Source: Polytrichum commune (Eukaryota; Streptophyta; Polytrichopsida; Polytrichales; Polytrichaceae). From it: a stretch of 64,000 bases of DNA. The translations under genes were made by a program, and so were the position numbers. Location: positions 71,871,554 through 71,935,553 of the forward strand of contig OX485803.1 in NCBI GenBank assembly GCA_950295325.1, read 5' to 3'. A model generated the notes under the pieces. It had not been told where the DNA came from. It did no database searches and saw only the letters and a list, made by a program, of their open reading frames with translations. This document shows positions 800 to 60,985 of this stretch, piece after piece; position 1 is the first letter of the stretch; each line of letters starts with the position of its first letter.

Positions 800-1596
800 G
801 GGCCACTTCACACACAAGCCAAGTGCCGGGACCATGAGATTGTGAGAGCCCAAACACACCTCCAAAATCATGTCGTGCGGTCACGGGCCCTCAAGTGTAG
901 TGTGAAGCCGTAAGTGACCGGGCCCTCAACCCAATGCCATTTCAATGAATTTCTATTCACACGGGTCTTCACACATGATCAAATTCGAAGAAACCAACGG
1001 TTGTGAGCGTTCGGAGTGTCATGGTCTCCCGGTCTGGTGGTAGGCATGCCTCCGAGAGGCGGTTTTTGAGAATAGTCCAAGTGACCATGAAACACGATCC
1101 ATTCGATGCCACGTAGGAATCCACCCATGTAGACGTTACCTCCATCTTGCTGCATCCACTCACATACTCACTCCGTTGGTCCCTCAAGCGTAGCGTGAAG
1201 CGAACTTGGACCGGCTCCGCCTCCGCCGTTTCCACCAACGAGAGTGCTTGAGGTGTAAATTATCACGGGCTCGCAGTCTCACGTGCTATGATCGGGGGAA
1301 AACCGGCGGTTAGCTACAAATGAACCGGTTGAGTTTAAGAAATAAGCGGTTGAAGTTCAAAACTGCAGGAAAATTAATGAATCAGTTAGGTTTAAGAAAT
1401 AAGCGATTGAAGTTCAAGACTGCAAGAAAATTACCGATCATTTAGAGGACTTTATAAAATATACCCCAATTCAATAAAGGAAAACCGAAGGATGTCGTCA
1501 ACATGTAACCAGTTGGACTTGCAAACACGAGGATCTCAACCGATTAGTATAATGCCCAAAAACCTCCCCCGTCACTGCTCGTGTGTGAAGGGGCCC
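800..1596. mobile_element. Tourist-like (PIF/Harbinger-type) element, copy 1, interrupted
   Basis: The left end GGGCCACTTCACACACAAGC and the right end, read inward, GGGCCCCTTCACACACGAGC form terminal inverted repeats. TCA flanks both sides (797-799 and 1597-1599), a 3-bp TSD close to the TAA/TTA of PIF/Harbinger elements. The interior matches, in reverse orientation, the complete copy at 32776-33275. About 275 bp of another repeat (1294-1570, GGGGA family) sits just inside the right end, which explains why this copy is about 800 bp rather than 500 bp. No transposase is present, so it is non-autonomous. Confidence 0.8.
1294..1570. repeat. GGGGA-ended dispersed repeat, copy 1
   Basis: It begins GGGGGAAAACCGGCGG and ends AACCTCCCCC, so the ends are short inverted repeats. 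It is inserted in the Tourist-like element around it. Internally a ~57-bp unit (around GGTTGAGTTTAAGAAATAAG) is repeated in tandem. Related copies lie at 34440-34610 (reverse) and 60331-60541. A short related piece that begins GGGGAAAACC and ends TTTCCCC is at 1631-1675. The class is unknown, since no clear TSD could be defined. Confidence 0.6.
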
Positions 1597-4640: not shown

Positions 4641-4920
4641 AAGATAAGTAACCAATTATGCACATCTACCTAAATTACTCCCAGCCCATACTTTTTTGTG
4701 GTCAAGAGCCATGCCTATACTTAGAGAGGAAACATAGGCAACTACACCCCCTATGCAAGTTCCTAGCACAACTTCAAACCCCACATCAAATTAACATACC
4801 CTGTTCATACCACCACTAGGGGGGGATCACATGATCATAACACTACAACGATTAAAGTTAGTTACACTGGACGTGCATTCTAAAATTTCACAACGATTTT
4901 CAATCCCATGGGGTGCACTA

Positions 4921-5013
4921 GATTTGGGCGAACCAACCCATATACTCATTCCTTGTTGGATGCCTAAACCCTTATCTCCAAGGAACCAGTGTATGGGTTG
5001 GTTCGCCCAAGCC
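4921..5013 (-). mobile_element. 93-bp foldback element, copy 1
   Basis: A near-perfect hairpin. The arms pair TTGGGCGAACCAACCC with GGGTTGGTTCGCCCAA and extend to about 32 bp (29 of 32 paired) around a 23-nt loop that holds, in reverse, AAGGGTTTAGGCATCCAA less two bases. It is flanked by a 10-bp TSD, GGGTGCACTA (4911-4920) and GGATGCACTA (5014-5023), with one mismatch. Two further copies at 17883 and 27321 are exactly the same length. 9-10 bp TSDs point to the Mutator-like superfamily. Confidence 0.85.
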
Positions 5014-5023
5014 GGATGCACTA

Positions 5024-16939: not shown

Positions 16940-17882
16940 TAGTTATACATTTTGAGGCATATGTTATGTTACATTGATGATTAACAACTTCATCATGAGT
17001 GTCATCTCATGACACTTGGCATTCAAGTGCGCTTACTAATATCTTGGCATGAGTATGTTCAATAGTGCAATGAGGTGCGTGCCTATGTTGCACAATGGGC
17101 TATAAGTTGACTAAAGTGTACACAAATGACACTTGCCATTAGTACACTCAAAAATATCTTCCCCTTGCATACTAAAATGGAAGACTATCATCTTATATCC
17201 CAATGTGTTGCTCTAAATGTCATAATGTAGATATTTTCACTCAAAGAAATTACTTATGTTGACAAATGGAATTACATTGGCAATTAGAGGGCGTGACACT
17301 TTTAGACCTCCATGCATCTAGTTTAGGCCCTTTGCAAGTAGTGTGCATAACACTAGTACTACCATAAACGGTGCAGTGCACTCATGAAAGCCTATAGCTA
17401 GGTATCATGTGACGAGACAATATGATAGCTCAAATCTTAGTGTGTTCTTTTGTGTAGGTTCCTAGCCCATAATTCTTAAATGTCTAGCTACTCATACAAC
17501 ATGCCACTTCTCAATCTCTTAAACGAATGAAATTAATGATAATCTTAAACGAATGAAAATTTCAAGGTGTTGATTTTGGGTGGAATGTTGGTTTTAACAC
17601 CCTCTACCTTATAGGGTGAGCATAATTTACTTGAGCTAAAACCAAGTTTTAATGCTGCCACATGGACATCCACCTAGGATCGACAAACATCGTTAATAGT
17701 AGTTGGAATACAAAATACGTAAAACTTCCCTACCAGCTAAAAACCCTTCGTCTAACATCAAGTGGAGAAGGGCCTTCACTTGCTTCCTCAAAATCTACTT
17801 CCAAGCAACTTTCACACTAAACATTGAAAAGCATTACTCAGTACCTCCCTTTGTAGATAACACGTGTGTGTCATCCTCAAGG
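16940..17882. other. Gene-free interval
   Basis: AT-rich. It contains the second CACCCTCTACCTTA block (near 17600) shared with 14.0 kb. No gene is seen. Confidence 0.35.
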
Positions 17883-17975
17883 GGCTGGGGTGAACCAACC
17901 CGTACACTCGTTCCTTGGAATCAAGGGTTTAGGCATCCAACAAGGAACGAGTGTACGGGTTCGTTCGCCCAAATC
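17883..17975 (+). mobile_element. 93-bp foldback element, copy 2
   Basis: Arms of about 30 bp (start GGTGAACCAACCCGTACACT) pair almost perfectly around the loop ending AAGGGTTTAGGCATCCAA. It is flanked by a perfect 9-bp TSD, TCCTCAAGG (17874-17882 and 17976-17984). It has the same length and loop as the other two copies and encodes nothing. Confidence 0.9.
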
Positions 17976-17984
17976 TCCTCAAGG

Positions 17985-20380
17985 TGACCTTTGAACACAC
18001 ACGTTGCATTGTGCACCACATTGGAGGCGCAACGACTACACCATTCATGGTATTTGGTGTCACTTTCTATTCGGATTTATGCATAGCTGTAGCGTTTTAT
18101 TGTTCATGTAATTTTTTTTCACCCAGTAAACATGTTAACGTTCTACACTGTTCAAACAACCAATTTGACCGTCGTTGGTGAAGAAAACGAGATCTACAAC
18201 AGAGAGTCAATGCACGATGTAACCCCGCATCGTAAGTGGCACTCAACACCATAAACGGTGCAGTATATGTTCATCACTGTTGATCAAATGACTGATTGGA
18301 CCGTAACGCTGCTGTATTTATAAATTGTGTATATATATATATGCATGCGGACCAATTCCCAAATCTCTGAGTCGGTAATCTTAATCCTCCTCGTGAGTGA
18401 AGATGATCATTCACATTATTATTACTGTGAAGGAAATGAAATTGCGGGGAAGAAATTCTGTTTGCCGTTGGACTTGGCGACATGCCTGCAGTGTGTCTCC
18501 CCCGAATTCGCTTCCCCAAGCACATGAACTTAACGCAATGGGAGTAGCTAGCTAGAGTAGGATGCATGCACAGACTACTGCTGCTGCTGCTGCTGTTGCG
18601 GATGTCCCGATTTTACACTTTAAAAATAATGCAAGCGTCAAAGCTCATCCCAAGGCTGTCATGACTCATGTGTGACTCCTCACGTTTGACTTCCTGAACA
18701 CAAACTCATTGTAACGTTGAGGAAGGCGCCAGGACTACTATATATATATATACAGATTAAAGAATCAAAGAGAATGATACGTAAGTTACAGAAGGGGCCC
18801 GATCGAGACAATGATCATCGATGGGGAGTTGAAACTGGATTAACTTAAAAGAGTGGTGGTGGTGGTGGTGGTGGAGCACGCGTCTTGTCCAAGTCAAGGG
18901 CGAACTTCCATGTGTTGGGTGTTCATGTAAGAGATATTGGATTTGTCACGTTGGCAAATTTTTGGACAAGCTTCATCGCGTTGGCAAACTTTTCGACAAG
19001 ATTTGTCAACAAAAGGTTCGTCAAATACTTTCATGTGGATTAGGGGGTTGATTTATGAAAGAACGTATATGTTTGATTATTTGGCATGTAAGTTGGAATG
19101 TGATTGGTGTCGCAACTAGTCATTTTGAATATATGTCAAGTGGGTTTATCAAACTTTATAGATCTTGAGGTACTAGGAAAATGTAAATAAATTCAAAAAT
19201 AATAATGGAAATTCTGGGCAAGTTTTGTTTGATAAAAATTTGCCACCTTTGGGAACACTGGGGGTAACATACAACGTCCTGCTACATATATAATTGCCCA
19301 CCGGTCCTTACAAATTTTGTTTTTGCTATGATCACATGTAAGTTTGTTGTAGCAAGTCAACCCTTGAACCTTGTTTCTACTAGATGATTCAACTTTAATT
19401 GAAGGTTGGAATAGGTTATAGTGGAAAGTCATGAACATAATTCTTGCATTTGTGCACTTCAATGAATTACCAAAGTAAAAATGTCAATAACTAATATTTA
19501 CTTTTATTCATCATGCAATGGTGGATTACTTGTGTGTGCAATGGAAGCTGAGTTAAACATACATATGTTACAAATAAACTATCAACCTAAAATTAGTGAC
19601 CTACTCGTCCAAATAGTTGCTTGACCACTGGAGAGCATTCACACACTTGGATTTCATCAAGTAGCCAACGTGGTTTGAAGGCAAGACCTCTAGCTAGACT
19701 TGTGGCCTCGCAACACCTCATGCATTCACTTGTCCTACACCCAAGACACTTTTCTCACACATATGCACACAAAGGCAAATATTTGACAAGATAATAGCTA
19801 GTTCAATATTTACTTACTCTCTTCATTGTTGGATACCGTAGCTCTCTAGCAGCTTGGGCACCTTTTTGCCTAATAATCAATTAAAGTGCGAAAGTAAATT
19901 AGGCAGCTCATAAAATAATATTCTAAAATTGGGAAAATTCAAAAAGTAACTTAAAATAAGTTAGACATTCATTCTTGTTTGCTTGTCTCATTCCCATTTT
20001 TATGGGCGTGTGTCAACATGACTTGTGGAGCAAATTCATGCTTGTATTGTTTTTAGACCATGAATGAGGTTGATGCCGCATGAAGACATTGTTGAAGTTA
20101 TTTGATGTTACCTTGTTGGATTTCAGTGAATGCCACTTGCATTATTATGATTTTAGGCATTCTTTGAATGTTATTCTTTTTTTTTGGAGACACTCAACGA
20201 AATTAATTTCCCAAAATTCTAGGCACCTTTAAAATTAATTATTTTTTGCCCAAGCTACTAGAGAGCTACGGTAGCCTAGAGTAACAAAGTTGCCTTGATC
20301 ACTTTGTGGCAAATAATCTAATTACACTACAACGTTTGATTGATGTCTAGTGTCTTTTTTTGCACCGGATCACCTATTGC
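17985..20380. other. Gene-free interval
   Basis: It holds simple repeats (CTG)n at 18578-18595, (TA)n near 18740 and (GTG)n at 18853-18874. No gene, RNA or bounded element was recognised. Confidence 0.35.
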
Positions 20381-23046: not shown

Positions 23047-23185
23047 ACGGGAGAGTGGGGAGTTTCAAGGTTGAATCATCAGTAGAACCAGTTACTTCAA
23101 AGTTGCAGAGGAGCTGCAAGGTTTGGGTTGGTTTTACTTTGTTTTTTGGGTGTGTGTTTTGTCGAAGGCGACGGTGGTTTCTGGT

Positions 23186-24970
23186 ATGGCGATGCATTCC
23201 TTGGGTGCCGCTCGGCACAATGCGGCAGACCTGGCCGCCGTATTGGCAAATGCCAACACAACGTTGCGGAACGCAGGCCTGTTGTCTGCGCTGCTGCAAG
23301 GCTCGCAGCAGCTGCCTCCGATGTTTATCGACGCAGAAAATGTTCAGTCCACCGCCGCAGCCGCACAGCGTCAAAACCAAGCTATGGGTGCGGAGGAGAA
23401 GGGCCAGCTATCCTGCAGCAGTAGCAACCAAACCCAGATTCCGGTGGTGGACCTGTCGTTGCTGAGCGATCCGTCGGCGCGAGCTGGGCTGGTGGCCTCC
23501 CTCGCGGAGGCGTGTGAGAAGTTCGGGTTCTTCCAGGTGGTGAACCATGGGGTGGACAAGGGATTGATCGAGCGGTGCGAGGCGGAGGCACACAAGATGT
23601 TCGAGCTTCCTTTGGATGTGAAGGAGCGGGTGCACCGGCCTCCTGGAACGTCGTTTGGCTACGGGGCCAACACCTGGGTTAACCAGACGGTCATGCACTG
23701 GGCTGAGAGCTTCCATATGCAGCTGCACCCCACTTCCAACATCCGGGACTTCTCCGGGAAGCTTTTCTCCGAGGGCGATCCCTCCAAATTCAGGTACTCA
23801 CACCCCCTTCTCTCGATTCGTACAAATTAAATTCTTCAAAGCAATCATCACTGAGCAAAAGACTACAGTTGGATAACATTGTTCAAATCAGCTTCTCTTT
23901 TTACAATCAAGGAACAACTCTCCAAGAATGGGGGTCTTCATTTTGAGGAATGAATGTCGGGCAGAGCACAGTCAAATGGCAAACTCCGAGTAGTCGAACT
24001 CACCCCCATTATGAGAGGAGGAGAGGAGAGGAACGAAGTTTAAAACGTAAAGCCTTTGGCGCACATTGAGTCAGCAGATTGAGGCTTGAAATTGCACATC
24101 TTGTCCTACATGGGAATTTGATGTGCCTTTGGAAAAGGATTTGTTAATTTGGGGTAAGCTCTCAGCTGACACTGTTGTTGCAATGGCTCTTGCAGTTCCA
24201 CAGTGGAGGAATACATGGCGGAGATTGAGAAGCTGGCTCGCCAGTTGCTGGAGCTGCTCACCGAAGGCTTGGGTCTGGAGCCCACAACCTTCAATCACTA
24301 CGTGGAGACTGAGCGGATGATGTCAATGCGCTTCAACCTGTACCCGCCTTGCCCGCAACCGGAGCTCGCCATCGGCCTGCGAGCGCACACTGATCCCCAC
24401 CTGCTCACCATCCTCCACCAAGACGAGATTGCCGGTCTCCAAGTGCACATTAACGATCAATGGATCACTGTCAAGCCCCGCCCAGACTGCTTCGTCATCA
24501 ACATCGGCGACCTCTTCCAGGTATTCCTCGTTGTGTTGCTTGCTTTTGCTAAAATCTCCAATGTCAACTACCCCGAGCTCCAACAAGAAAGGATTTCCAT
24601 TTCCATTTCTGGGGGCCTAACTTAGGTCATTTTTGTCAAGAATGTGTTTGATCCAAACAGCTTTCAAGGATTGAGTGAATCTATTGTGCCTAACCCAGTT
24701 TCTGTCACCAATGTTGATCTGCAGGTGTTGAGCAACACAAGGTACAAGAGCGTCCTCCACCGAGCTGCAGTGAACGGCACCACAAAGCGCCTCTCCCTTG
24801 CGTGTTTCCTGAACCCGCCTTTGAGTGCCACAGTGGAGGCTCCTCCGGAGCTCATCACCGACGAGCGGCCGCAAGTCTACCGACCTTTCACATGGCTGGA
24901 GTATCTCACTAATGCATACAAGTTCCATCCTGCCAATGGAGGCGAGAGGCACGAGCGGTTCTTCAAATGA
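23186..24970 (+). CDS. 2-oxoglutarate-dependent dioxygenase, gibberellin-oxidase type
   Basis: Three exons, 23186-23793, 24196-24520 and 24725-24970, joined in frame with GT-AG introns of 402 and 204 bp, give 392 aa. The N-terminal dioxygenase domain starts at IPVVDLSLL. The catalytic Fe(II)/2OG domain starts near RFNLYPPCPQPEL and has the iron ligands H267, D269 (HTD) and H323 (VLHR) plus the 2-oxoglutarate-binding R333xS335 (RLS). The block LLTILHQDEIAGLQV and the tail YRPFTWLEYL resemble GA20- and GA3-oxidases, so it belongs to the plant DOXC class, a cytosolic oxidase of small molecules. The exact substrate (gibberellin-like diterpenoid, flavonoid or other) cannot be told. The start was chosen at the first ATG in frame; a second ATG follows two codons later. 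The first ~75 residues are Ala/Gln-rich and poorly conserved. All key residues are intact. Confidence 0.9.
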
Positions 24971-27310: not shown

Positions 27311-27320
27311 GTAGAGTTGT

Positions 27321-27413
27321 AGTTGGGGCGAACCAACCCGTACATTGGTTCCTTGGAGGCAAGGGTTTAGGCATCCAACAAGAAACAAGTGTATGGGTCG
27401 GTTCGCCCAAATC
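27321..27413 (+). mobile_element. 93-bp foldback element, copy 3
   Basis: The arms start GGCGAACCAACCCGTACATT and pair with the right arm around the shared loop AAGGGTTTAGGCATCCAA. It is flanked by a perfect 10-bp TSD, GTAGAGTTGT (27311-27320 and 27414-27423). It has the same orientation as copy 2 and opposite to copy 1. Confidence 0.9.
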
Positions 27414-27423
27414 GTAGAGTTGT

Positions 27424-34439: not shown

Positions 34440-34610
34440 GTTAAGATGAACCAAGTCCAACCGCTTGAATGTTGTGATCTTTCAATTTTTCTTTATTCAT
34501 TTTAGGTATACTCCACATATTTGTCTACATTAATCGTTGAAGTGTTGAACATCAACTGTTTACTTCTCAAACTCGATTGGTTCATGTGTAATTAGCAGTT
34601 GGTTTTCCCC
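34440..34610 (-). repeat. GGGGA-ended dispersed repeat, copy 2
   Basis: Read on the minus strand it starts GGGGAAAACCAACTGCTAAT and continues with CATGAACCAATCGAGTTTG, matching the start of copies 1 and 3. The other end is poorly defined. Confidence 0.5.
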
Positions 34611-36595: not shown

Positions 36596-36958
36596 GTATG
36601 CGTGTGGTATTTGGTTATTTTTCTTAATCGGATCCCTATATCTGATTGGTGTGTGATTAGGTGAGAATAACCTAATCTCAATCACACATATTTAAAGAAA
36701 TTAAGCTACACCTTCAAATTTTATAAATTATTCCATAGTCAAATAATAAACACAATGGGGGGGGGGGGGAGCAATACATTCAGTTACAAATTCAACAAAC
36801 ATGTAACGTCAATAATCATAACTAAATAAGGGGTAACTTGATTTTCAATCCTATTTTTGACAATGCTTCATAAATTTACTAATGCAACACAAATTTTGAT
36901 GTGTAAATGTAGAAGTTGGTGAACCTGAAAACCAAACCGAATAACACCACATAGGTAT
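36596..36958. mobile_element. GGTATGCGTGTGG inverted-repeat element, copy 1
   Basis: The left end GGTATGCGTGTGGTATTTGG and the right end read inward, GATACCTATGTGGTGTTATT, are imperfect inverted repeats. The interior (AATAATCATAACTAAAT, GCAACACAAATTTTGATGTG) matches 60610-60985. A 13-G tract (36757-36769) lies inside. An end-only fragment of the same family, reversed, is at 37520-37605. Confidence 0.55.
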
Positions 36959-40700: not shown

Positions 40701-43700
40701 GGAGTGCATCCTTTGACAATGCGCTCAGAGCGAGACAAGAGATGGCTAGAGTCAACAGTTCTGCGCTTGGGATCCATGCTGTCTGAACTTTTGCCCCTGG
40801 TAAGAGGTTTAAGCATCATCTTCATAATTTGTGTTGATATACATGTGTCTCTAGAAGTAAAAGGTAAATGTGCCTAATTCAGTCACTTATCTTAATCTGT
40901 CACCTATATTTGAGTGGTGAGTGGTTACATGCGGATCTAAATATGGATACCAAAAAGACACGTGTTTAGAAGAGATTGGAGTACCTGCTTAAAATGTGTT
41001 AACCATTCTAAGTTCAATAGTCAACATATGGAGGGTGGGGGCTACATGGTTGTGCTTTGGCTCCAATGCTTTTGACTTTGAAAAATGATTGCAGCAACAT
41101 GGGAGATATTAAGATTCTATAGATTGTTGCTAAAATCTCATGTAACATTTGCAGATCCAAGAAAAGTCCTAGCTCTAATATCCAAGTTGAGAATCGTGGC
41201 AAACAACAAGTACTAACAATTTAAGACACGTTTACCTTATGGGATGTATTCTTATGCATAATGAATTCTAAAGAGCCATAGTCAAGTACAAATCGGTGAT
41301 GGTCTTTTGGGGTGTGTGATTAGCTCTGTGCACATCCTGCTCCAGCAGTGAGGCTTGCGGTTGTGGAATCTACTGCAGTGCTTCTCTTAACTTGTGGTGG
41401 CACGCTTGAGAACTGCACATATATATTCTTGGTAAGAATTATCAGGTGCCATTACTGATGAAAGTAGCAACTTCTGGCTTTTCTCATAATGTTTAAATCA
41501 TATAGTGTTTACTGATGGCAATGAAGTAATTTCACTAATGGCTAGCTTGCTAATTAACCACAAACTGCAGCTCTTGATGAAACAGTTTTAGCATTTTATT
41601 GCCTCTGTGTCTCATTGTGTCACGTTTTGAATGTGGAATTTAGTGTACTAGTGCCGAGACATTTGAACATCTATTGTATAATATCTGCCACAATGAGGTA
41701 TGGATAAATTGCTTGACATTGTATTTAACATACTGCTATTCAATTGTTACAGGATTGCTTATTGGCATTGAGTTGTGATGAATGGAGTCACGTTGCTTCA
41801 GCAGCTAACTCAAGTCTCATGTTCCTCACATCTGTTGGTGAAGGTCTTAAGAACGTTAATGGTGGTACTGATGTTGAGATATTACATCGATCTCGGTGCA
41901 TACATAGGTCAAGGTTCCAAAAACAATCTCTGCTCAATGTTCTTCAAAGGTATGGTCTTTCTCATAATACAAAACTGATTTCACTTTCTTCTATTGTGCT
42001 TTTGATTTGGGTGATGTGCATGGTTCTAATTCCTTAATATCTTGAATCTAGGTGTAGAACAAAACCATGCATGTTGAATACACTATTTTTGTCTTTCATG
42101 ATTGCAAGATTGCTGGAGAAACTTCCCCAAGCAGTATTTGCAGGAAATGAAACTATGGCAGTACTTCAGGCACGCCGATTAGCTGCTGCTATTTATTTCC
42201 TTGGTCCGGATGCCATTCACTCATTCTTTCTAGAGTCTCTGGTGAGTATGAAATTACTACTGGTTCTGCTACAGTTAAGCAACATGAATTTGGTTTTCTA
42301 TTCTAATCTTATCCACTGTGTTATAAGTTTGTATCATATTTGTTGTTACCTGAGAATCACTGTTTATCACTAAAGGGCCTCACGTGTGTTTGTGTGGCAT
42401 GGATGGTGTCCACAGGAAGCCTGTGAAAAGTTTGTGAGCATTATGTCACAGTGTTTGAGCTTTTCTTCTTCGTTCTCTGGCCCCATCAATTTGACCAGCT
42501 TGGCCACCTCATCAAAATCAAGCCCCCTTCTGGTTATGTCTGAACTTAAGACCAATGCAATTGATGAAGAGACTGTATCGTCCAAACTTCCCATACAATC
42601 AGAGCAAAAGCATGAGAGGGTGGAAGTTATTGTAGCAGCAGAGATCCTGCCGCGGATGCCACCGTGGCTTTCACAAAGTGCTCATCGGGTCTACAAAACA
42701 CTTGCATGTATCATCAGACTTGTTGGTGGAGCTGCAGTTTCTGGTGAGAGCTTGTTTATGTCAATCATGTTGAGCCACTTGCATGCATTATAGCATATGC
42801 ATGTATGTTTGAGGTGCTTAAAATCGTTTTTCTTTTTCATGTTCTAGGTAAGCCTGGGGATCCCGCACTGATGCGCATTGTGGAGATCCTCTTGGATACT
42901 CTACAACAAGCAGCGAGTGAGCTACGCGAACAACCAGAGGAAGCGAATCAGATCATACACTTTGGGGATGGTCGTTTGCAACGTGCTTCTGCCACATCAG
43001 TTTGTATTCTTAATGAATTTGTGTACGGTGCCTCAGGGCTTTGGACTGATAAATTGTCCAGCTTCTTTGGGGATTTCTCAACTAAAGAGGCTCATGAATC
43101 TGGGAAGTGGTGGAAAGGAAGTAATGTGGATGCAAAGTCCCACATTAGTGAGTGCATGGGCAATATATTGCATGATTACTTGTCACCAGAGATCTGGGAG
43201 CTTCCAGTTGAGGCTGTGGCACGCTCAGCACGCAAAGAATCCAGTTCAGATATGTCACTTCTGCATGTTCTTCAAGACAATGCCATGCTCCAACAGGTTT
43301 GTGAATATCAGATTGTTTGCAGTTCTCCAGTTTCTATGTTTGCCATCTAGAGTGCTAAATGTATCAAGTTTTATTGACGTTGGCAAATTGCTCTTGAGAT
43401 TGGGTGAAGGAGACATTTCAAATTTGCAGAGAAATTTGTACAGGTACTTGTGGAAGGTATCGGTGTGTTTGGAATAGCACTTGGTAAAGCATTTGAGAAT
43501 GGAGGGTTTCTGGCACTTGTTCTGTACCCCTTGCTGGAAAAGCTGGCTTCAACCAATCTGGATGTTAGTAGTGCTGCAGATATTTCTCTTCGTGCCATCT
43601 GTTATCACAGTGGTTATCAATCGGTATTTCAACCTACTCTCCTTTCCCTGATTTAGTGGCTTTCTGTTCATGCATAATCTTATGCCTTTGCCTATGTTTA

Positions 43701-46700
43701 CTCTTGATTTCTTCAAAGTGCCTCACGGAGCAGATTTGTAAAACCAGGTTAAGGAGCTAGTAATCCAAAACTCGGACTATGTGATCGATTCCCTGTGTCG
43801 GCAGCTCCGGCATCTTCCTCACTATCCATATGCCCCTTCCCTATTGGCAGCTATTCTAAGGCATACTGGCGCTGCCCCACATCTGCTTCCTCTTCTTGAA
43901 GAGCCTGTAAGAGAATCTTGTAACCTGATACCAAAGCCTGTTAAACCCCATGCTCAAGCTTTATGTTGTCATTGATTGCCACTTGCTGTAAAATTTACTA
44001 CAATATGCTTTTTGATTTTGTTATTCTGGGTAGTTCATTGTCATGACACCTTGAAGGTGATGCTTTTGCTGCAGATGCAAGGTATCGTGTTGGAGCTAGA
44101 AGTTCCAGCAAGAAGGAGGCACCCACAGTTAACTTTACCATTGTTACGGGTATGCTTTCTCATTCCAGTGTTAATTGGAAGCGGTGCTTCTTCTTAGTCC
44201 AACCTTTGCTCGAGTGTTTTTAGGATCAAATCTTGTTGCCATTATCCTTAAGAAATACTGTTCTCACCACATTGATCTGCTGGCTTTGGTGTCTCTCATT
44301 ATATTTTCACCATGTTTAAACTACAGTCATATTGACGATTTGTGTTCATGCAACTCCATTGTCCACCCTTTTAAATGGTCTATTTACACTCAAAACTACA
44401 GTAGTACATGATTTAGTTCCCTGTGATTACCGTGAAGTATAGTTTTAGAATTATTTCAGTTTCCTGATGGAGTACCAAAGCAACATGAAATCTTGTTCGC
44501 TGTCACTGATATCATATGAAGATGTCCTTTGTGTCTCTGTTGGACCTGCTTTTGTTCATGTTTTTAAACTCGATCTTTTCAGGCACTTCGAGAGATAGCT
44601 AAGGCAGCACGTGTTGAAGGATGTGCCATGTTTGCTGAAGCATCAAGTACTGTTGCTCGTATGAAAAGCACACTAGAAGCAGAACTGGATATTTGTACAG
44701 AAGCCGGGCAGATGGGCATTGAGAAACTGATAACTGAAGTTCAGGACACAGAGAGGCGTCGGAAATCAGTGGTGTCTGTGGCCACCTCTTGCCTCCATGC
44801 ATGTACACCTCTGTTGGCTTCCCAAGATCCAGAAACATGCCTACTTGTGCTTGATACAATTGAGGTATGCAGAATATGTTAGATTGAAAGGAAAGTTCCC
44901 AACATGAGATGAAGGTTGATCACATGGTTTCACTTTATAAACATGGTGGCAAAATTATCGTTTTTAATGGATTGATGGTGGGTGATATTCTTGAGTTTAG
45001 GGGTAATATTGATAATGAGGGTTAGCTTCTCTATGATTCAGGATGGAGTTGCTGGATTGGCAGATATGGAGGCAACGTTTCCTCATTTACAAGCCCAACG
45101 TACTGCAATTGAGGACTTCCTTGCGAGGAGTGTTAAGGATCTTGGTGATCCTGATGATGTGAAACCTTTTGGTTCCCAAGATGAGGGTAGCCAGAATAAT
45201 ATTCTCTTGCCAAGCATGAATAAAGTGTGGCCACAATTGGTACCGTGTCTTCGACACACCAAGCCTGCGGTACATAGTACAATCTCTCCTCTCAAGTCCT
45301 TCCTTTTTGCCCTTGTTATGTGTGATGGCTGGAAAGTTTGTCCCCAGGGTGAGTTTGAAATTTGCTCCCAAGGCTGCCAAATATTTCTGTTGATTTACCT
45401 AAGAGCTCCTTTCACCTGACTTAAGCAGATGGTTGGAGTTTAAACCATTATACAGGAAAATCGATGTATTGAATGCAAGGGGCAGCCACCTCCAGCTTCC
45501 TGTATTACTTGCATCTGCAGGAGCAAGCTACATTGAAATGAAGCTGAACCTGACAAGGAACACAATTAACCATATATGTTGGGTTCTATGATTGAGCTTC
45601 TTCTGAGATAGAAGAGTGCTTAGCAGAAATCATCATGCTATGCACTTCACTGTGAGAAAATATTAGAAACTGATGGTGGAATTGGTCAAGGCAGCAGGCA
45701 ATCATGAATTCTAGTCACCTCTTAGATTTATGTTTTGAGGATCAACAGTCCTGGCTGGTGTCTGAAAGCAAACAGAGGCTCACATGTAAGTAAAATGTGT
45801 TACAGATCCTTGTACGGGTGCTGGCTGTTATCTCAAGTATTATCCACAATTGTGGAGGTCATTTCTTTACCCGCCGCATTGCAAATGATGCCCTGCCTTT
45901 GCTGTTGAAGCTTCTTCGGGAAGGACCCGCATCAACCGTGACCCGTCCATCTGATAATTTGCGACCCAAGACTAGCAAAGAAATTCTGCTGCTTAAGAAT
46001 CAAGGAAGTGAGGTCCGCGAGATGGGAACTTCACCTTCAGCTGTTCTCAAGGTCCAGCAAGCAGTGTTGACATGTATTCAAATGATTGCAGGGGACAAGA
46101 AAAGTTCTCCTGCACTTGATACTGCGTACAAACCAATTGTAGCGTGGATTGTGGGTTTGGCATGTAAAGTGCAGGCCTTGTGGGCAGCAGCAGCTGAGGC
46201 CCTTGTTGCCCTTTCAAATGTTGACTCCGATCTAGTTTGGCTCCTTGTAGCAGACCTTGTTTACGGTAATTAACTTTTCCCAAGTTTAAAAAAGTTTCTG
46301 ACTTGATTTATCAGTATCATATTATTCTCCTTTTGCAGAAACTCTGAACAGCTGTGGTGGCACTTTGATATTTATGGTGAAGTATCTATCACCTAGTAAG
46401 CTAACGTTTGGTTTGTTTATCTGGATATTCACTCTCATCAATTTCTAGTGGTTTCACCAGTTTTTTAGCCACTCATAGTGAGTAAGAGATCACTTTAAGC
46501 AGGTCAGTGGCAGAGCCAACGTTAACCATAAAACATCTCTATTTGTGTACTCACTATGGTGTCCTATGATTTCATTGGTTGATCAACTTTCAACTGACAT
46601 GTAATCACTATGCAGGTGGACATACCCACGGCTTACAATCACCTGGAGAGGAATTTTTAAGCTTTGATCAAGTTTTCCCACCCCTTCCTTCTCCAAAAGA

Positions 46701-60330: not shown

Positions 60331-60541
60331 GGGGAAGAATCGACGGCTAGTTACAGATGAACTGGTTGAGTTTGAGAAATAACTGGTTGATGTTCGAGAC
60401 TTCAGGAGGATTACCGATTTTTGAAGAGGAATTGATGGAATATACATTCATTTAATAAAGAAAAACCAAAAGATCACAACACGTAACCAGTCAGACTTGG
60501 AAACACTAGGATCTTGACCGATTGTGGCCAAAAATCTCCCC
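60331..60541 (+). repeat. GGGGA-ended dispersed repeat, copy 3
   Basis: About 211 bp from GGGGAAGAATCGACGG to AAAATCTCCCC. It matches 1294-1570 through TGAACTGGTTGAGTTTGAG and CACGTAACCAGTCAGACTTG, but carries only one of the two ~57-bp internal units. Confidence 0.6.
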
Positions 60542-60609: not shown

Positions 60610-60985
60610 AGGCATGTGGGTCTTTTTGGCTACTCTTCTTAATTGGACACCTGTATTTGATTGGTGTGTGGTTCACTGAGGATCAAAGAACACCACCATA
60701 AGGAGACCTATTTAAAAAGATATTGGACTATGCCTGCAAGTTCAACAAACTTATGACACTTAGTAGCGAACACAATTGGGAGGACTTTTAAAGGTATCAT
60801 CAAACATGCACTTCCAATAATCATAATTAAATTAAGGGAGGTTCAAGTTTCAATTCGATTTTTATTGATACTTTATTATCGTATATTTGCTAATGCAACA
60901 CAAGTTTTATGTGTGAACCTAATCAGTATAAGTTGGCGAACATGAAAAATGAATTGAATAACACTTGCATACCTAATGTGTTGAA
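60610..60985. mobile_element. GGTATGCGTGTGG inverted-repeat element, copy 2
   Basis: It starts GGCATGTGGGTCTTTTTGG and ends AACACTTGCATACC; the interior (CCAATAATCATAATTAAAT, GCTAATGCAACACAAG) parallels 36596-36958. The ends are more diverged than in copy 1. Confidence 0.5.

What the first reader, a model, noticed from the sequence alone, without database searches (positions are those of the whole stretch)
17874..17984. A family of exactly 93-bp perfect-foldback transposons with 9-10 bp target duplications
Three copies (4921-5013, 17883-17975, 27321-27413) are each 93 bp, almost entirely a hairpin of ~30-36 bp arms with a ~21-23 nt loop, and each is flanked by its own 9-10 bp TSD: GG(G/A)TGCACTA, TCCTCAAGG, GTAGAGTTGT. 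One copy is inverted relative to the others. The TSD length is that of Mutator-like elements, yet the whole element is little more than two TIRs back to back, unusually small even for a MITE. Three copies in 64 kb suggests very high copy number genome-wide.
Basis: partly seen in the sequence, partly recalled or inferred. Interest (0 to 1): 0.8.

Follow-up and report, generated by a model that had tools for sequence, protein, structure and literature searches.

The report
Tiny 93-base Mutator-type plant transposon
These three hairpin sequences are copies of a tiny 93-base jumping gene, present roughly 1,500 times in this genome and descended from the two ends of a rare, much larger (about 9.5-kilobase) Mutator-type transposon lineage that probably supplies the enzyme to move it; the kind is known, but this one is unusually small and its line of descent is unusually well preserved.

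Summary
In detail: three 93-bp hairpins with 9-10 bp target duplications at the stated places. The fold is good, not perfect (28-31 of the outer 38 positions pair).

A 24-base core of the element matches 1,477 times genome-wide (reversed control 0). Of 83 copies examined (80 from contig C1 chosen by the core alone, plus the window's three), 58 are exactly 93 bp and 76 are 91-97 bp. A 10-bp duplication dominates (41 of 83 at >=80% identity; 0.03% in cross-paired flanks). Paralogous empty sites were found for three copies.

A partner lineage exists: a low-copy MULE (26 left-end, 23 right-end matches), 9,543 bp in one copy, with a PF10551 domain, similar ~34-bp ends (25-29 of 36 positions) and a perfect 10-bp duplication. 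A 3.4-kb relative shares ~46 bp with the MITE, into its loop. A rarer sister MITE (92-94 bp) carries one end of each MULE type. The 93-mer is best read as an internal-deletion product of this lineage, spread by transposase in trans.

Verdict: a new member of a known kind (Mutator MITE), notable for small size, fixed length and preserved relatives. Two head-to-tail arrays remain unexplained.

The parts
17883..17975 (+). 93-bp MITE copy W2 (reference copy, family orientation)
17874..17882 (.). left target-site duplication TCCTCAAGG of W2
17976..17984 (.). right target-site duplication TCCTCAAGG of W2
4921..5013 (-). 93-bp MITE copy W1, inverted relative to the other two
4911..4920 (.). left target-site duplication GGGTGCACTA of W1
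5014..5023 (.). right target-site duplication GGATGCACTA of W1 (one mismatch)
27321..27413 (+). 93-bp MITE copy W3
27311..27320 (.). left target-site duplication GTAGAGTTGT of W3
27414..27423 (.). right target-site duplication GTAGAGTTGT of W3
16949..17179 (+). paralogous empty site: a repeat that in copy L036 carries the MITE but here does not (80% over 233 bp across the junction)
60617..60861 (+). paralogous empty site for copy L079 (67% over 257 bp across the junction)
36619..36851 (+). second paralogous empty site for copy L079 (65% over 244 bp across the junction)

Best explanation
The three sequences are copies of a 93-bp Mutator-superfamily MITE: two ~35-bp transposase-recognition ends around a ~23-nt spacer, with no coding capacity. 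The founder arose by an internal deletion in an element of a ~9-10 kb MULE lineage, keeping about 53 bp of one end and 40 bp of the other. A MULE transposase supplied in trans recognises the two ends, cuts the 93-mer out and reinserts it with a ~10-bp stagger, which gap repair turns into the 10-bp duplication. Repeated rounds gave about 1,500 copies of one fixed length. Shown by sequence: fixed length, duplications, empty sites, similar ends on a transposase-domain element, smaller relatives, and a sister ~93-mer. Inferred: that a transposase of this lineage moves the MITE, that movement is cut-and-paste, and the order of descent. The confidence is for a Mutator MITE of this lineage moved in trans; which MULE drives it is the first rival.
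For: 1,477 core hits, 0 in control. 58 of 83 copies exactly 93 bp and a dominant 10-bp duplication; 77 of 113 have an 8-11 bp duplication with <=1 mismatch, allowing 2-nt boundary play, against 0.9% of cross-paired flanks. Empty sites for L009, L036 and L079, and L081 inserted in the loop of another copy, whose removal restores a 93-mer. Partner: 2 of 16 fetched PF10551 loci (L087, L088) are independent insertions of one element, 8,840 and 9,543 bp, whose ends match the MITE arms at 25-29 of 36 positions with the same boundary (local alignment scores 33-43 for the 9,543-bp copy against maxima of 19-20 in 300 shuffles). PF10551 at E 3.2e-13 in a 483-codon open frame of the 8,840-bp copy, plus a sub-threshold SWIM match. 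Perfect 10-bp duplications in 3 of 10 elements tested: the 9,543-bp copy; C1:44.44 Mb, about 9.8 kb; C3:56.90 Mb, 1.9 kb. A 3.4-kb relative at C1:54.236 Mb aligns with the MITE over 46 bp, into the loop (score 55, shuffle maximum 20; loop part alone reached by 0 of 1,000 shuffles). Sister MITE: 5 of 5 fetched are 92-94 bp with 9-11 bp duplications (<=1 mismatch), one end GGGGAGGGC (MULE left type), the other GGYTGGGGC in 3 of 5 (MULE right type), 70-83 identities to the 93-mer. Loop forms intermediate between sister and main family exist.
Against: Six of ten large or intermediate elements tested show no convincing duplication (the 8,840-bp copy, P1, P2, P5, the 3.4-kb and the 2.2-kb element); P3 has 8 of 9. 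P1 and P2 span about 45 and 37 kb, so their ends may not belong together. End identity between the transposase-domain copies and the MITE is only about 70-80%, so these copies belong to the lineage but need not be the direct parent or current driver. The first open frame of the 9,543-bp copy is interrupted by a stop codon, and no copy was shown to be functional. The loop similarity is clear for the 3.4-kb element's right end only; of the other 11 subterminal comparisons, four gave P 0.014-0.039 uncorrected and seven were not significant. One end of the main MITE (GATTTGGGC) matches no MULE end seen here. 36 of 113 copies have no clear duplication. The core-drawn sample is all from contig C1. 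No transposition, expression or binding data.
Confidence: 0.9

Rival explanations
1. The 93-mer is driven by a different MULE family with similar ends, and the ~9.5 kb element is only a cousin (a rival on the driver, not on the kind of element).
For: End identity is about 70-80%, not near-complete. A second MULE locus (L095, 49% protein identity over 375 residues) carries an end-like match, 25 of 34 to the MULE ends and 24 of 34 to the MITE left arm, at one side only. 271 first-look PF10551 candidates exist and only 16 were read around.
Against: Same boundary and same 10-bp duplication, and the same left/right base difference at end position 27 (G in one end, C in the other) in the two full-length copies and the MITE, though not in every element of the lineage (both ends of the 3.4-kb element have G). 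The 3.4-kb relative and the sister MITE link the lineages.
Confidence: 0.3
2. The hairpin amplified mainly by a replicative or slippage route (self-priming hairpin, extruded cruciform, or tandem duplication across the duplications) rather than by cut-and-paste.
For: Two loci (L048, L125) hold three head-to-tail copies with the same ~9-10 bp sequence between copies; L067 and L078 hold tandem copies with 20- and 96-bp spacers.
Against: Arrays look rare: 72 of 80 core-drawn loci show a single copy in ~524 bp, and exact-end patterns give 3 direct adjacencies (two of them the loci L048 and L125), 0 tail-to-tail and 1 head-to-head place with spacers of 0-30 (exact matches only, so lower bounds).
Confidence: 0.07
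3. A conserved structural RNA or a domesticated regulatory hairpin rather than a transposon.
For: Strong fold; a survey reports MITE-derived miRNAs (abstract and passages of PMC12550479).
Against: No Rfam family at gathering score in the window. Copies carry target duplications and diverge (mean 7.4% outside the core; 9.4% in the left arm, 5.7% in the right).
Confidence: 0.02

Closest known systems
Mutator-superfamily MITEs of plants (e.g. BraMu-1 of Brassica, DTM63 of Citrus)
   Same: Short, inverted ends, 9-10 bp duplications (passages of PMC3991616; PMC6466647).
   Different: 93 bp here against a Citrus Mutator-MITE mean of 256 bp and about 150 bp for DTM63; for DTM63 the authors report finding no autonomous partner with the same ends.
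MuTAnT / AutoMuTAnT of Medicago truncatula
   Same: Small non-autonomous Mutator elements with a related putative autonomous element (abstract and passages of PMC4486113).
   Different: 90% of MuTAnTs are 200-300 bp and they target TA microsatellites; this family is 93 bp and its sampled targets show only weak base preference (C first, G last).
SaTar non-autonomous MULEs of guayule and rice
   Same: Non-autonomous MULEs with 10-bp duplications and some end-to-end arrays (passages of PMC5907723).
   Different: SaTar arrays join unrelated elements in microsatellites; the few arrays seen here repeat the same MITE with one ~9-10 bp sequence between copies.

Membership tests
MITE (miniature inverted-repeat transposable element) | Short (50-800 bp), non-coding, terminal inverted repeats | tested here: met
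   93 bp; 31 of 38 outer consensus positions pair; too short to encode a transposase (inference)
MITE (miniature inverted-repeat transposable element) | High copy number with uniform length | tested here: met
   1,477 core hits; 58 of 83 exactly 93 bp
MITE (miniature inverted-repeat transposable element) | Target-site duplications and empty sites | tested here: met
   empty sites for 3 of 83 copies in the sequence held; for W2 itself none was found
Mutator (MULE) superfamily | 8-11 bp target duplication | tested here: met
   10 bp dominant, 9 bp second
Mutator (MULE) superfamily | Ends shared with an element encoding a MULE (PF10551) transposase | tested here: met
   25-29 of 36 end positions identical, so similar rather than identical
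Mutator (MULE) superfamily | Mobilised by that transposase | not testable with these tools
   needs a binding or excision assay
Direct deletion derivative of the ~9.5 kb MULE | Both ends plus subterminal sequence collinear with the parent | tested here: inconclusive
   46 bp collinear with a 3.4-kb relative in which no transposase match was found; with the 9.5-kb copy similarity ends at about position 34-42
Foldback (FB/Tetris-type) elements | Long, often repetitive inverted repeats making up most of a longer element (definition recalled) | tested here: not met
   the arms are single ~35-bp MULE-type ends

The most novel reading that the evidence does not exclude
The 93-mer is near a physical minimum for a Mutator substrate: two recognition ends only ~23 bp apart, too close for easy looping, so the transposase may act on an extruded cruciform or on ends in trans. 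That mode could also leave same-site head-to-tail arrays, making this family a natural assay for the synapsis geometry of MULE transposases.
Probability: 0.1. Interest if true: 0.7.

Novelty: new member of a known kind. Interest (0 to 1): 0.38.

Why it matters
One genome holds what look like successive stages of miniaturisation: a rare ~9.5-kb Mutator element, 3.4- and 2-kb relatives, a rare 92-94 bp sister, and a 93-bp element in about 1,500 copies. That gives a candidate transposase-substrate pair for asking how little DNA a Mutator transposase needs. The Citrus study seen here reports finding no partner for its candidate active Mutator MITE (PMC6466647); MuTAnT of Medicago has a putative one (PMC4486113).

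Tried and rejected
Arm homogenisation (gene conversion between arms) at the non-complementary positions: position 27 changes G to C in 7 of 12 non-G, non-gap copies, but positions 5, 74 and 89 show no clear drift to the partner's complement, and 3, 20 and 67 are confounded by transition or CpG decay. Not pursued.

Structural RNA: no Rfam match at gathering score in the window.

Empty site for the finding's own copy: joined flanks of W2 found only the filled site plus a separate short repeat in the right flank.

Microsatellite targeting: sampled target duplications are mostly complex sequence, so a SaTar/MuTAnT-like preference is not supported.

The F element (C5:36.15 Mb) has a matching left end, but no right end or transposase match in the 9.95 kb read.

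Organism: not named by the tools. Gene content (2OG dioxygenase, TTI1-like) and seven large contigs suggest a land plant (inference); literature searches on guessed taxa (mosses also in 24 and 68) did not identify it.

An earlier count said 73 of 83 copies lie within 91-97 bp; the correct count is 76.

Full report
OBSERVATION. The three copies were read directly. Each is 93 bp, lies at the stated coordinates and is flanked by its own direct repeat (9 of 10, 9 of 9 and 10 of 10 bases). Folded as single-stranded DNA they reach -31.0, -31.3 and -24.7 kcal/mol; none of 200 dinucleotide shuffles did as well for any of them. The hairpin is imperfect: 31, 30 and 28 of the outer 38 positions are complementary. 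No Rfam family reaches its gathering score in the window.

GENOME-WIDE FAMILY. The window is part of a 408-Mb genome in 64 contigs. A 24-base core taken from the loop and right arm matches 1,477 times at up to 2 mismatches, against 0 for the reversed control. The tool listed the first 100 exact matches, all on contig C1. I fetched 80 loci covering 81 of them and later 14 more. These were chosen by the core alone, not by their ends or flanks. With the three window copies (83 in all), 58 are exactly 93 bp, 76 are 91-97 bp, and the extremes are 80 and 127. The copy scored as 80 (L031) is split by about 165 bp of other DNA. Mean divergence from consensus outside the core is 7.4% (5.9% without CpG positions); 2 of 83 show no substitution outside the core, gaps ignored. 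Three of 16 copies from other contigs, picked for similarity, match the consensus at 93 of 93, and a fourth at 92 of 92 aligned bases.

TARGET DUPLICATIONS. With element ends fixed by alignment, flanks agree at 10 bp in 41 of 83 copies (>=80% identity, 17 exact) and at 9 bp in 14 of 83 (8 exact). Cross-pairing flanks of different copies gives 0.03% and 0.01%. Allowing 2 nt of boundary play and at most one mismatch, 77 of 113 have an 8-11 bp duplication against 0.9% in cross-pairs; 36 of 113 do not. Base preference in 56 ten-base duplications is weak: C in 25 at the first position, G in 27 at the last.

EMPTY SITES. Flanks of the 83 copies, joined without the element, were compared with the sequence then held (window, the 83 loci, L083-L102). 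Three matched other sequence across the junction: L009 (in L099; small gaps in and next to the duplication), L036 (window 16949-17179) and L079 (window 60617-60861 and 36619-36851); identities are 65-80%. L081 is a copy inserted in the loop of another copy; removing it restores a 93-mer. The finding's own copy at 17883 has no such paralogue among the genome matches.

THE PARTNER. PF10551 (MULE transposase) gives 142 listed matches from 271 first-look candidates, 150 of them scored. I read 16 of these loci. Two (L087, L088) proved to be independent insertions of one element: 99% identical over most of their length, different flanks, same left boundary. With the adjoining stretches they are 8,840 and 9,543 bp long. 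In the 9,543-bp copy the ends read GGGGAGGGCGAACCGACAAGTACACTGGTACCTT (left) and GGCTGGGGCGAACTAACATGTACACTCGTACCTT (right, inward). The MITE arms read GGCTGGGGCGAACCAACCCGTACACTGGTTCCTT and GATTTGGGCGAACCAACCCATACACTCGTTCCTT. Identity is 25-29 of 36, the boundary is the same, and the G/C difference at position 27 between the two ends is the same in both full-length copies, though not in every relative. Local alignments of these ends to the MITE score 33-43, against maxima of 19-20 in 300 shuffles. The 9,543-bp copy has a perfect 10-bp duplication, AGCATCGTCT; the 8,840-bp copy has none that is clear. The 8,840-bp copy has an open frame of 483 codons with PF10551 (E 3.2e-13) followed by one of 343 codons with a sub-threshold SWIM match; in the 9,543-bp copy the first frame is interrupted by a stop codon. 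An opposite-strand frame of 265 codons is conserved in relatives. Genome-wide there are 26 matches to the left end and 23 to the right end. Of ten elements with both ends examined, three have a perfect 10-bp duplication (9,543 bp; about 9.8 kb at C1:44.44 Mb; 1.9 kb at C3:56.90 Mb), one has 8 of 9, and six have none that is clear. Two of the six pair ends about 37 and 45 kb apart, so the pairing itself is uncertain.

INTERMEDIATES. An element at C1:54.236 Mb (about 3.4 kb, no transposase match, no duplication found) ends in a sequence that aligns with the MITE over 46 bp, into the loop (score 55; maximum of 300 shuffles 20). In a test of the loop part alone, this end was reached by 0 of 1,000 shuffles; of the other 11 comparisons four gave P 0.014-0.039 (uncorrected) and seven were not significant. 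A 2.2-kb relative at C2:8.068 Mb has similar ends and no clear duplication. Querying the genome with the 3.4-kb element's end gave 34 matches. I read six of these places, among the better-scoring ones: one was the 2.2-kb element and five were a sister MITE of 92-94 bp with 9-11 bp duplications (<=1 mismatch in 5 of 5). It carries one end of MULE left type (GGGGAGGGC) and one of MULE right type (GGYTGGGGC in 3 of 5), and has 70-83 identities to the main MITE. A 32-base pattern from the sister loop gives 41 hits at <=3 mismatches; by my reading nine of these carry the main or an intermediate loop, leaving 32 of sister type.

MECHANISM. Best reading: an internal deletion in this MULE lineage left a 93-bp founder with about 53 bp of one end and 40 bp of the other; transposase in trans then spread it. 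The fixed length follows from descent from one founder. Shown: similar ends, duplications, empty sites, sister and smaller relatives. Inferred: the identity of the driving transposase, cut-and-paste movement, and the order of events.

WHAT DOES NOT FIT. Eight of 80 core-drawn loci hold more than one MITE hit in their ~524 bp; some are single copies split by an insertion, nested copies or partial copies. Two loci carry three head-to-tail copies with the same ~9-10 bp sequence between copies (L048; L125, whose copies are diverged). L067 has two copies with a 20-bp sequence repeated three times around them. L078 has two copies in a 188-bp tandem duplication. Exact-end patterns find only three direct adjacencies within 0-30 bp (spacers 10, 9, 5; the first two are L048 and L125), no tail-to-tail and one head-to-head place (spacer 10), where the second copy is only a 34-bp left arm (L127). 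Slippage or unequal exchange after insertion is the simplest reading for the direct arrays; reinsertion at the same site is not excluded.

LITERATURE. Seen as abstracts or passages only: plant Mutator MITEs with 9-10 bp duplications (PMC3991616); a Citrus Mutator-MITE mean of 256 bp, with DTM63 at ~150 bp and no partner found (PMC6466647); SaTar MULEs with 10-bp duplications and mixed arrays (PMC5907723); MuTAnT with a putative autonomous partner (PMC4486113); and a 207-genome survey giving 50-800 bp as the typical MITE range and Mutator as 41.5% of MITEs (PMC12550479). A search for papers holding MITE, Mutator, autonomous, 93 bp and terminal inverted repeat together found none.

On re-reading the calls I corrected the size of the insertion in L031 (about 165 bp), gave the sister family as 92-94 bp rather than 93, and added results that weaken the case (interrupted frame, non-significant subterminal tests, position-27 exceptions, uncertain pairings).

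Noticed in passing
L048:199-520 (G000:C1:35026222-35026745): Three head-to-tail MITE copies, each separated and flanked by the same 10-bp sequence (CACCCCGGTA, with substitutions); a fourth, inverted copy lies about 106 bp upstream.
   Followed up: partly
L125:1-340 (G000:C1:42347300-42347800): Three diverged head-to-tail MITE copies with CACGGCTTA recurring between and after them.
   Followed up: partly
L067:76-321 (G000:C1:46972526-46973049): Two head-to-tail copies with a 20-bp sequence present three times around them, twice the usual duplication length.
   Followed up: no
L078:202-590 (G000:C1:50126533-50127245): Two MITE copies inside a 188-bp tandem duplication that includes flanking DNA.
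   Followed up: no
L081:173-368 (G000:C1:51438500-51439023): A MITE inserted in the loop of another MITE, the loop sequence AGGGTTTAGG serving as the duplicated target.
   Followed up: yes
window 23075-24967 (+): Exons of a 2OG-Fe(II) dioxygenase gene (PF14226, PF03171), ending about 2.4 kb to the left of the MITE copy at 27321.
   Followed up: partly
window 42748-46270 (+): Exons matching the TTI1 (TELO2-interacting protein 1) TPR domains, the second one under the cut-off.
   Followed up: partly
window 1377-1536, 34451-34585 and 60356-60532: A different dispersed ~150-bp repeat, also found in many fetched loci (e.g. L014, L038, L039, L041, L068, L085, L091, L097, output cut at 60 lines).
   Followed up: no
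window 18030-18091: A short dispersed repeat just right of the MITE copy at 17883; 39 of the 41 matches listed are to it.
   Followed up: no
L087/L100 and L088/L099: The MULE carries a conserved opposite-strand frame of 265 codons, also present in pieces in the 3.4-kb relative that lacks a transposase match (34-40% identity); possibly a second element gene like mudrB (analogy only).
   Followed up: no
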